A stretch of 64,000 nt of DNA from an uncultured bacterium (lineage in GTDB: Bacteria > Bacillota > Bacilli > Lactobacillales > Lactobacillaceae): the NCBI GenBank assembly GCA_905214235.1, contig CAJMLF010000007.1, forward strand, positions 9,882 to 73,881, given 5' to 3'. The translations under genes and the position numbers were made by a program. Below the pieces are notes generated by a model. The model worked only from the letters and a program-made list of their open reading frames with translations. It was not told the DNA's origin and searched no databases. Every line of letters starts with the position of its first letter. Position 1 is the first letter of the stretch. Shown one piece after another: positions 62,684 to 63,775 of this stretch.

Positions 62684-63775
62684 ATGGCTGATATTGATGT
62701 CAATAAGGATTTAGTGAAAAAGATTGTTCAACAAGTCCTTGCTGAACAATCCGGTTCATCTAATGGCAATGGTGGTAAAAAGATCTTTGCTTTCAGTATT
62801 CGGAAGGATGAAGAACCATATGTTAAGGAATGGGCAAGTAAGCATCCTAACATTGAAGTTGGATACACTGATGAATTACTTACTCCCAAGACGGCAAAGT
62901 ACGCTAAAGGTGCTAATGGTGTAGTTGTTTACCAACAACTTGATTACACTGCTGATACTCTTCAGGCACTTGCTGACGAAGGTGTTACTAAGATGTCCCT
63001 TCGAAATGTCGGTGTTGATAACATTGACATGGCCAAGGCTAAGGAACTTGGTTTTGAAATTACTAACGTTCCTGTTTATTCACCAAACGCCATTGCCGAA
63101 CATGCGGCAATTCAAACTGCCCGGATTCTTCGGCAAACTAAGGTAATGGACGAAAAGGTTGCTAATGGTGACCTTCGTTGGGCCCCAACAATTGGTCGGG
63201 AAGTTCGAGACCAAACCGTTGGAGTTATCGGAACTGGGCACATTGGCCGGGTCTACATGCAAATTATGGAAGGCTTTGGTGCTAAGGTCATTGCCTATGA
63301 CCCATTCGAAAATCCTGAATTGAAGAAGCAAGGCTACTACGTTGACAGTCTTGATGACCTCTATGCTCAAGCAGACGTTATCTCACTCCACGTTCCAGCT
63401 ACTAAGGAAAACTTCCACATGATTAACCAGGACACCATTGCCAAGATGAAGGACAACGTGGTACTTGTTAACTGCTCACGTGGGGCCTTAGTCGATACGG
63501 ATGCCGTTATTGCTGGCCTTGACAGTGGTAAGATCTTTGGATTTGTTATGGATACTTATGAAGATGAAGTTGGCATCTTTAACGCTGATTGGCGGGGCAA
63601 GCAATTCCCTGACAGCCGGCTTGAAGACTTGATCCACCGTTCCAACGTCTTAGTAACTCCACACACTGCCTTCTACACTACCCATGCCGTCCGCAACATG
63701 GTTATCAAGGCCTTTGATAACAACTGTGAGTTAATTAATGGTAAACCAGCTGATACACCGGTTAAGGTTGGTTAA
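62684..63775 (+). CDS. D-lactate dehydrogenase with N-terminal Pdu encapsulation peptide
   Basis: A 363-residue fusion. Residues 1-22 form an amphipathic helix (MADIDVNKDLVKKIVQQVLA) matching the PduD and PduE tags; 23-31 (SGSSNGNGG) is a flexible linker; 32-363 is a full NAD-dependent D-LDH with GVIGTGHIG, catalytic Arg in NCSRGALVDTDAV, Glu in DTYEDEVGIF and His in LVTPHTAFYTTHA. The start has GAGGT 7 bases upstream and no internal ATG lies at the core boundary, so the tag is translated. The untagged paralogue at 42.6-43.6 kb starts at residue 32. AT-rich like pdu. Inferred to sit inside the microcompartment and exchange NADH/NAD+ with PduQ. Confidence 0.93.
   Translation: MADIDVNKDLVKKIVQQVLAEQSGSSNGNGGKKIFAFSIRKDEEPYVKEWASKHPNIEVGYTDELLTPKTAKYAKGANGVVVYQQLDYTADTLQALADEGVTKMSLRNVGVDNIDMAKAKELGFEITNVPVYSPNAIAEHAAIQTARILRQTKVMDEKVANGDLRWAPTIGREVRDQTVGVIGTGHIGRVYMQIMEGFGAKVIAYDPFENPELKKQGYYVDSLDDLYAQADVISLHVPATKENFHMINQDTIAKMKDNVVLVNCSRGALVDTDAVIAGLDSGKIFGFVMDTYEDEVGIFNADWRGKQFPDSRLEDLIHRSNVLVTPHTAFYTTHAVRNMVIKAFDNNCELINGKPADTPVKVG

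What the first reader, a model, noticed from the sequence alone, without database searches (positions are those of the whole stretch)
62684..63775. D-lactate dehydrogenase carrying a microcompartment encapsulation tag
Seen: residues 1-22 form an i, i+3/i+4 hydrophobic helix (DLVKKIVQQVLAEQ) that lines up with PduD (NLVRQIVQEVLAQT) and PduE (DLVKKITQQLGEQ), then a Gly/Ser/Asn linker, then an intact D-LDH. The first 16 bases (ATGGCTGATATTGATG) are identical to the 5' end of pduD, which suggests the tag was copied from it. The untagged paralogue at 42.6 kb shows the extension is not part of the enzyme. Known: such N-terminal helices send enzymes into Pdu compartments. Inferred: this is a luminal D-LDH, an enzyme I do not know as a Pdu cargo, giving a lactate-linked cofactor loop.
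Basis: partly seen in the sequence, partly recalled or inferred. Interest (0 to 1): 0.95.

Follow-up and report, generated by a model that had tools for sequence, protein, structure and literature searches.

The report
Lactate enzyme tagged for bacterial microcompartment
Beside a bacterial microcompartment operon that lacks its usual aldehyde-oxidising enzyme sits a D-lactate dehydrogenase gene carrying the same kind of helix tag as the compartment's own cargo, so the enzyme is likely packed inside and would recharge the compartment's cofactor from lactate.

Summary
The ORF at 62684-63775 is an intact D-lactate dehydrogenase (78-80% identical to solved Lactobacillus D-LDHs) with a 31-residue extension: predicted helix 8-22, disordered linker, enzyme core. 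Against a profile built only from other Pdu cargo tags, 22 of 22 tagged D-LDHs outscore all 801 background N-termini; 89 untagged relatives reach at most 2.8 bits. In 397 Lactobacillaceae genomes, all 9 with a tagged D-LDH have the B12 diol dehydratase (47 of 397 overall). The window's locus has no pduP, pduL or pduW. Its nearest dehydratase relatives (mostly Levilactobacillus) lack pduQ too and carry tagged D-LDH plus an R-specific-type alcohol dehydrogenase next to the operon. D-LDH and dehydratase trees agree. Best reading: a luminal redox partner that would feed NADH from D-lactate to PduQ in place of PduP. Location and direction are inferred. Against: one 99% complete tagged genome has no compartment genes; some genomes with pduC and PduP carry the untagged form; PduP loss with the tag is one evolutionary event; the shell may let NADH through.

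The parts
62684..63775 (+). tagged D-lactate dehydrogenase gene, 363 aa
   Evidence: 2-hydroxyacid dehydrogenase domains; best PDB matches are Lactobacillus D-LDHs
62705..62749 (+). encapsulation-peptide-like helix, residues 8-22
   Evidence: profile; helix; motif in 22 of 22, pN/pS 0.24
62750..62776 (+). flexible Ser/Gly/Asn linker, residues 23-31
   Evidence: 23-30 below pLDDT 50; 18 distinct linkers in 22 proteins
62777..63775 (+). D-LDH core; R266, E295, H327, D206 and Y83 invariant in 27 aligned relatives
   Evidence: that these are the catalytic, NAD-site and pocket residues rests on recalled literature numbering
62672..62676 (+). ribosome-binding-type site GAGGT
62573..62588 (+). cre-like site (catabolite control), two mismatches to a consensus written from memory
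   Evidence: similar sites 94-111 bases upstream in 4 of 6 other upstream regions tested; weak evidence, no shuffle control was run at two mismatches
61551..62258 (-). MIP channel (PduF-like glycerol facilitator), divergent from the D-LDH gene
   Evidence: best NCBIfam hit LarD lactate channel, 170.6 bits, cut-off 390; MIP 166.7, cut-off 171.25; both below cut-off
59469..60548 (+). PocR-like AraC regulator (label recalled)
60612..61481 (-). EutJ-like ATPase-fold protein (label recalled)
58971..59267 (-). PduA shell protein
   Evidence: identical to the G031/G001 genes, which match PF00936
58188..58934 (-). PduB shell protein
56485..58161 (-). PduC, diol/glycerol dehydratase large subunit
55763..56461 (-). 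PduD, medium subunit, with its own N-terminal tag
55233..55748 (-). PduE, small subunit
53354..55204 (-). PduG reactivase
52088..52975 (-). PduK and PduJ shell proteins; no pduL between pduJ and pduM
50032..51991 (-). PduM, PduN, PduO adenosyltransferase and a tagged HbpS-like protein
48856..49977 (-). PduQ-like iron alcohol dehydrogenase, the presumed NADH user; no pduP between it and the HbpS-like gene
42647..43651 (-). untagged D-LDH paralogue

Best explanation
This D-lactate dehydrogenase carries a Pdu-type helix tag and is likely packed inside the Pdu microcompartment, where it would oxidise D-lactate to pyruvate and so supply NADH to the alcohol dehydrogenase PduQ, in place of the missing PduP. 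Shown here: the intact D-LDH, the tag and linker, their conservation, the shared history with the dehydratase, and the absence of pduP (from the locus and from the two L. panis genomes held) and of pduL and pduW (from the locus). Inferred: binding of the tag to the shell, location in the lumen, and direction. In the canonical compartment PduP makes NADH and PduQ uses it; without PduP an enclosed PduQ would gain from another NADH source inside. Lactate is small and abundant in these cells, and untagged D-LDHs of the same genome, presumably cytosolic, could refill it from cytosolic NADH, so lactate/pyruvate would act as a redox shuttle across the shell, ending in 1,3-propanediol or propanol. In Levilactobacillus-type loci, which lack pduQ too, the neighbouring R-specific-type alcohol dehydrogenase would be the NADH user.
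For: Tag: 22 of 22 tagged D-LDHs outscore all 801 background N-termini; 89 untagged relatives reach at most 2.8 bits. Constraint: pN/pS of the tag helix 0.24 (core 0.10), linkers vary. Co-occurrence: 9 of 9 tagged genomes have PF02286, against 47 of 397 overall. Linkage: in 8 of 8 named loci of six Levilactobacillus, one Lentilactobacillus and one Lactobacillus sp. the tagged gene lies within 3 kb of pduA. PduP: no match in G001 or G031 at E<=1e-60, while the same search found it in 41 of 57 genomes. Of 9 PduP-less genomes with shell genes 7 have the tag; of 36 PduP-positive genomes 2 have it. PduQ is absent from 6 of 6 Levilactobacillus-type genomes at E<=1e-60, and the SDR at >=92% identity occurs in exactly those 6 of 397. 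D-LDH and PduC trees both join window/L. panis with the Levilactobacillus type (94/95 and 99/97). L. panis PM1 makes 1,3-propanediol from glycerol and consumed lactate in stationary microaerobic culture, 53 to 33 mM; the passage does not tie that to glycerol (PMC3605185, passages).
Against: No experiment places the protein in a compartment. PMC5193401 (passages) expects NAD+ and NADH to pass the shell, in which case PduQ would need no inner NADH source. G050 (99% complete) has the tagged gene but neither pduC nor any PF00936 shell gene; G023 (75% complete) likewise. G005, G034 and G036 have pduC and PduP but an untagged form of the same D-LDH, and G024 has pduC and PduP with no tagged one. G206 and G306 lack PduP, keep PduQ and show no tagged D-LDH. 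G006, G008, G035 and G039 have tagged D-LDH and PduP together, the gene 46-48 kb from pduC in three of them (G035 not counted). PduP-less loci with the tag are one clade in the PduC tree, so the Fisher value of 2.6e-5 is not a count of independent events. The D-LDH equilibrium favours lactate formation (established knowledge).
Confidence: 0.55

Rival explanations
1. The D-LDH is encapsulated but runs the other way, reducing pyruvate to D-lactate and returning NAD+ to the lumen, as an extra sink beside PduQ.
For: Equilibrium favours lactate; tagged D-LDH coexists with PduP in G006, G008, G035 and G039, where PduP would make NADH inside.
Against: In the L. panis genomes and the Levilactobacillus type there is no PduP to make NADH inside, and the tagged gene is closest to the operon just there.
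Confidence: 0.2
2. The tag is a relic or has a role outside the lumen: the D-LDH is essentially cytosolic, or binds the shell from outside or helps assembly.
For: G050 keeps the tag without compartment genes; some genomes with pduC and PduP have lost the tag.
Against: The tag helix shows purifying selection over 19 genes, scores like true cargo tags, and the gene shares the dehydratase's history across genera.
Confidence: 0.18
3. The enzyme is luminal but its real substrate is another 2-hydroxy or 2-oxo acid, not lactate.
For: The wider family includes 2-hydroxyisocaproate and 2-hydroxyglutarate dehydrogenases.
Against: 78-80% identity to Lactobacillus D-LDHs and 39% to D-HicDH; R266, E295, H327, D206 and Y83 invariant.
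Confidence: 0.06

Closest known systems
Canonical PDU1 metabolosome (PduCDE, PduP, PduQ, PduL, PduW)
   Same: Shell genes, B12 diol dehydratase, reactivase, adenosyltransferase and, in the window, PduQ. L. panis is already listed as encoding a PDU compartment (PMC8156839, passage)
   Different: No PduP, PduL or PduW in the locus; a tagged D-LDH beside the operon; PduQ also gone in the Levilactobacillus type. PMC8217296 calls the aldehyde dehydrogenase of the common core ubiquitous (passage); loci with an incomplete core (MIC) are a known class (PMC8156839, passage)
Lactobacillus D-lactate dehydrogenase (PDB 2dld, 1j49, 1j4a)
   Same: 78-80% identity over the core
   Different: 31-residue N-terminal tag and linker; gene linked to pdu
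N-terminal encapsulation peptides of PduD, PduP, PduL
   Same: 15-20 residue amphipathic helix plus flexible linker, as described in PMC11157265 (abstract and opening of the introduction); high profile score
   Different: Sits on an enzyme outside the usual Pdu set
Acidobacterial compartment locus with a pfam00389/02826 hydroxyacid dehydrogenase (PMC8217296, passage)
   Same: A member of the same broad enzyme family in a compartment locus
   Different: Different signature enzyme (class II aldolase); the passage does not call it D-LDH or tagged; locus not compared here
Peroxisomal lactate dehydrogenase made by stop-codon readthrough (recalled, no call)
   Same: An LDH sent into an enclosed compartment to serve its cofactor pool
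   Different: Unrelated enzyme family, targeting signal and organelle

Membership tests
Pdu cargo with N-terminal encapsulation peptide | Amphipathic 15-20 residue helix at the N-terminus | tested here: met
Pdu cargo with N-terminal encapsulation peptide | Flexible linker between helix and enzyme | tested here: met
Pdu cargo with N-terminal encapsulation peptide | Gene in or linked to a compartment locus | tested here: met
   window; 8 of 8 Levilactobacillus-type named loci; 46-48 kb from pduC in G006, G008, G039; not met in G050
Pdu cargo with N-terminal encapsulation peptide | Found inside purified compartments | not testable with these tools
   needs proteomics or a reporter fusion
NAD-dependent D-lactate dehydrogenase (EC 1.1.1.28) | Catalytic Arg, Glu, His and NAD-binding Asp in the 2-hydroxyacid dehydrogenase fold | tested here: met
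   R266, E295, H327, D206 invariant in 27 sequences (roles recalled); family and fold. Best NCBIfam D-LDH model scores below its cut-off (297.3 v 356 bits)
NAD-dependent D-lactate dehydrogenase (EC 1.1.1.28) | Activity on D-lactate/pyruvate | not testable with these tools
   inferred from 78-80% identity to solved D-LDHs
Canonical PDU1 metabolosome | Shell proteins and B12 diol dehydratase | tested here: met
Canonical PDU1 metabolosome | CoA-acylating aldehyde dehydrogenase PduP | tested here: not met
   absent from the window locus and from G001 and G031 at E<=1e-60
Canonical PDU1 metabolosome | Phosphotransacylase PduL and kinase PduW | tested here: not met
   absent from the locus; not searched genome-wide
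Canonical PDU1 metabolosome | Alcohol dehydrogenase PduQ | tested here: met
   window 48856-49977; not met in 6 of 6 Levilactobacillus-type genomes

The most novel reading that the evidence does not exclude
A branch of Pdu compartments has discarded the aldehyde-dehydrogenase/phosphotransacylase core and become a purely reductive, lactate-powered organelle: an enclosed D-LDH takes electrons from D-lactate and hands them through a private NAD pool to PduQ, or in the Levilactobacillus type to an SDR alcohol dehydrogenase, so that lactate and pyruvate shuttle reducing power across a protein shell. This would give a molecular basis for lactate-glycerol co-fermentation in heterofermentative lactobacilli.
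Probability: 0.42. Interest if true: 0.88.

Novelty: new variant of a known kind. Interest (0 to 1): 0.8.

Why it matters
Metabolosomes are described as sharing one core: an aldehyde-making enzyme, an aldehyde dehydrogenase, a phosphotransacylase and an alcohol dehydrogenase that recycles the cofactor (PMC8217296, passage). A compartment without the oxidative half, with D-lactate dehydrogenase as the apparent cofactor recycler, would show that the redox loop can be swapped for one that imports electrons. It offers a gene to test for how lactobacilli oxidise lactate while reducing glycerol, and a natural module (tag plus D-LDH) for engineered compartments that make 1,3-propanediol or other alcohols.

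Tried and rejected
Tag copied from pduD: rejected, identity stops at base 16 and tagged relatives have varied N-termini. Mis-annotated start: rejected, no start codon at the core, tag under purifying selection. Spurious upstream extension: long N-termini such as P0031 and P0097 fall among the 89 untagged proteins, all at or below 2.8 bits. Searching residues 1-40 alone in the protein database gave only 4 candidates and was uninformative. Rfam found nothing at 38-64 kb. Promoter-like matches were no more than in shuffles (5 found, mean 5.5). Fisher tests are not independent of ancestry: the PduC tree makes PduP loss with the tagged D-LDH a single clade. The AlphaFold model rests on 27 sequences and its domain arrangement is poor (rmsd about 13 to D-LDH structures), so I use it only for helix, linker and fold family. 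G035 was left out of distance arguments because its genes abut without spacers. Rows dropped: P0007 (annotated start inside the tag) from the 22; D-LDHs with identical last 300 residues from the D-LDH tree, among them the window's own tagged protein, which G031's copy stands for (51 rows); PduC frames under 300 aa or not fetched, leaving 41 of 53 pduC-positive genomes plus the window (42 rows). PduP was searched in 57 genomes, 47 of them the pduC-positive family sample.

Full report
What is there. The window comes from a Limosilactobacillus panis-like genome: its pdu genes and tagged D-LDH are 94-100% identical to those of two held genomes, G031 and G001. The G001 contig is that of L. panis DSM 6035; the G031 contig has the length of a contig listed as L. 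panis. A pdu operon runs on the minus strand from 59.3 to 48.5 kb: pduABCDE, GH, KJ, M, N, O, an HbpS-like gene, pduQ and pduU. PduB, C, D, E, G, M and O are named by NCBIfam matches; the other labels come from homology, gene order and recall. A PduV-type GTPase (PF10662) lies at 44.9 kb. On the other side lie a PocR-like regulator, an EutJ-like gene, a MIP channel and, divergent from the channel, the ORF of interest.

The ORF. 62684-63775 encodes 363 residues. Residues 33-363 match Lactobacillus D-LDH structures 2dld, 1j49 and 1j4a at E-values of 2.5e-175 or below, 78-80% identical. R266, E295, H327, D206 and Y83 are invariant in 27 aligned relatives; their catalytic, NAD-site and pocket roles rest on recalled literature numbering. 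The best NCBIfam D-LDH model scores below its cut-off (297.3 v 356 bits). Residues 8-22 form a predicted helix and 23-30 are disordered. There is no alternative start at the core.

Is the tag more than chance? I built a 14-column profile from PduD, PduE, PduO2, PduP and PduL N-termini of lactobacilli, with no D-LDH in it. The 22 tagged D-LDHs score 15.5-25.4 bits; the best of 801 background N-termini scores 13.7; 89 untagged relatives reach at most 2.8; 0 of 5000 shuffles of the window's tag reach its 24.6. Left-out families are recognised in 97% (PduD), 100% (PduL), 86% (PduP), 69% (PduO2) and 19% (PduE) of cases. At the six hydrophobic positions only L, V, I or F occur in the 22; linkers run from 11 to 31 residues, 18 different ones (all 22 fit one motif, which I wrote after looking at them). 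Over 19 genes the tag has pN/pS 0.24 and the core 0.10 (crude counts near saturation), so the tag appears translated and constrained.

Where else is it? The protein search scored 7999 candidates and lists 120 of 5437 matches; the tags are near the top of that list, and the named sources of these rows are lactobacilli. Among 39 named loci 15 align from residue 1-4: L. panis, L. caviae, L. rudii, L. caccae, Ca. L. pullistercoris, two unnamed, six Levilactobacillus, Lentilactobacillus parafarraginis and Lactobacillus sp. HBUAS51381. In 8 of 8 of the last three groups the gene lies within 3 kb of pduA. In 397 Lactobacillaceae genomes, 9 have a full-length tagged match (threshold E<=1e-150) and all 9 are among the 47 with PF02286. 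In 50 genomes of the genus, 8 have it and 6 of those have PF02286; the exceptions are G023 (75% complete) and G050 (99% complete), neither with a PF00936 match. G005, G024, G034 and G036 have PF02286 without the tag.

The operon is not canonical. PduP, PduL and PduW references from complete operons (by NCBIfam aldehyde dehydrogenase, phosphate propanoyltransferase and acetate/propionate kinase) have no counterpart in the window's locus, and PduP has none in G001 or G031 at E<=1e-60. Of 47 pduC-positive genomes 11 lack PduP; two of these (G160, G398) have no PF00936 match. Of the other nine, which have shell genes in the fetched loci, seven have the tagged D-LDH and two (G206, G306) do not. Of 36 with PduP, two have it (G006, G008); two of those 36 (G331, G343) carry a PduP broken into pieces. 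In six Levilactobacillus-type genomes PduQ is also missing at E<=1e-60. Instead an SDR related to R-specific alcohol dehydrogenases sits beside the tagged D-LDH; at 92% identity or more it occurs in exactly those six of 397 genomes, the next best being 75%.

History. In a D-LDH tree of 51 rows the 18 tagged proteins lie in one supported group of 23 (98/89), with tag loss inside the L. reuteri/balticus/agrestis part; three changes suffice, 15 on average for shuffled labels. L. panis rows, one identical to the window's over its last 300 residues, group with the Levilactobacillus type (94/95, just under the tool's mark of 95). The PduC tree of 42 rows, rooted at its midpoint, gives the same grouping (99/97), next to the L. 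reuteri group. The two genes thus appear to have moved together between genera. It also means that PduP loss with tagged D-LDH counts as one event.

How it likely works. In the canonical pathway PduQ reduces 3-HPA and PduP, PduL and PduW oxidise it (PMC5193401, passages); the view of a private cofactor pool is recalled, and the same paper expects cofactors to pass the shell, which speaks against it. If the pool is private, an enclosed PduQ without PduP needs another NADH source. A tagged D-LDH could supply it from D-lactate, with untagged D-LDHs of the same genome making lactate outside. This is inference. L. panis PM1 makes 1,3-propanediol from glycerol and consumed lactate from 53 to 33 mM in stationary microaerobic culture (PMC3605185, passages), which fits but does not show the route. 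A lactate-glycerol co-fermentation in L. brevis and L. buchneri was described in 1992 (Veiga da Cunha and Foster; recalled, paper not held; cited in PMC3605185 for glycerol as electron acceptor). For the SDR type, dehydration of 2,3-butanediol and reduction of butanone have been placed in lactobacillus compartments (PMC6833138, passages), one possible substrate.

Is it known? Searches for lactate dehydrogenase with encapsulation peptide, metabolosome or microcompartment and Lactobacillus gave no report of a compartment D-LDH in the titles, abstract beginnings or passages seen (of 43 and 21 hits 20 each were listed; the single hit was not opened). The main text of the 2021 catalogue has no 'lactate'; its supplements were not read. 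L. panis is named as a PDU carrier in PMC8156839 (passage). PMC5193401 lists L. reuteri lactate dehydrogenases without naming them as cargo in the passages read.

Verdict. Tag: near certain as a Pdu-type tag. Luminal location: likely. Lactate-to-NADH direction: best supported, untested.

Noticed in passing
L163:12249-12488, L165:10744-10989, L162:6198-6446, L167:3309-3578, L170:13475-13687: In 5 of 6 Levilactobacillus-type loci looked at, the slot where pduP sits in full operons holds a 70-89 aa ORF that begins with a cargo-tag-like helix followed by two short 'S-LL' helices: an orphan tag or adaptor, perhaps for the untagged SDR; three reach 14 bits or more on the tag profile, and only 4 database relatives were found.
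   Followed up: partly
L071:9176-9934 and the same gene in five other genomes: SDR related to R-specific alcohol dehydrogenases, found at >=92% identity only in the six genomes with the Levilactobacillus-type locus; suggests a ketone or aldehyde reductase of this compartment type.
   Followed up: partly
L041:10371-16481, L058:3176-9275: L. panis genomes carry D-LDH fragments and an untagged 86% paralogue near the tagged gene, and G031 a second tagged copy: recent duplication.
   Followed up: partly
window 61551-62258: The MIP channel divergent from the D-LDH gene matches the lactate channel model LarD best, though well below its cut-off; a glycerol or lactate facilitator.
   Followed up: no
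L193, L200 (G306, G206): pdu operons without pduP, pduL and pduW but with pduQ, and no tagged D-LDH found; their NADH source is unknown.
   Followed up: partly
L044 (G035): Genes abut with no spacers and all on one strand: the assembly looks like artificially joined coding sequences.
   Followed up: no
L095: A contig labelled Faecalicatena absiana carries a D-LDH nested among Lactobacillus delbrueckii relatives: probable contamination.
   Followed up: no
window 50032-50556: The HbpS-like protein after pduO has its own tag-like N-terminal helix.
   Followed up: no
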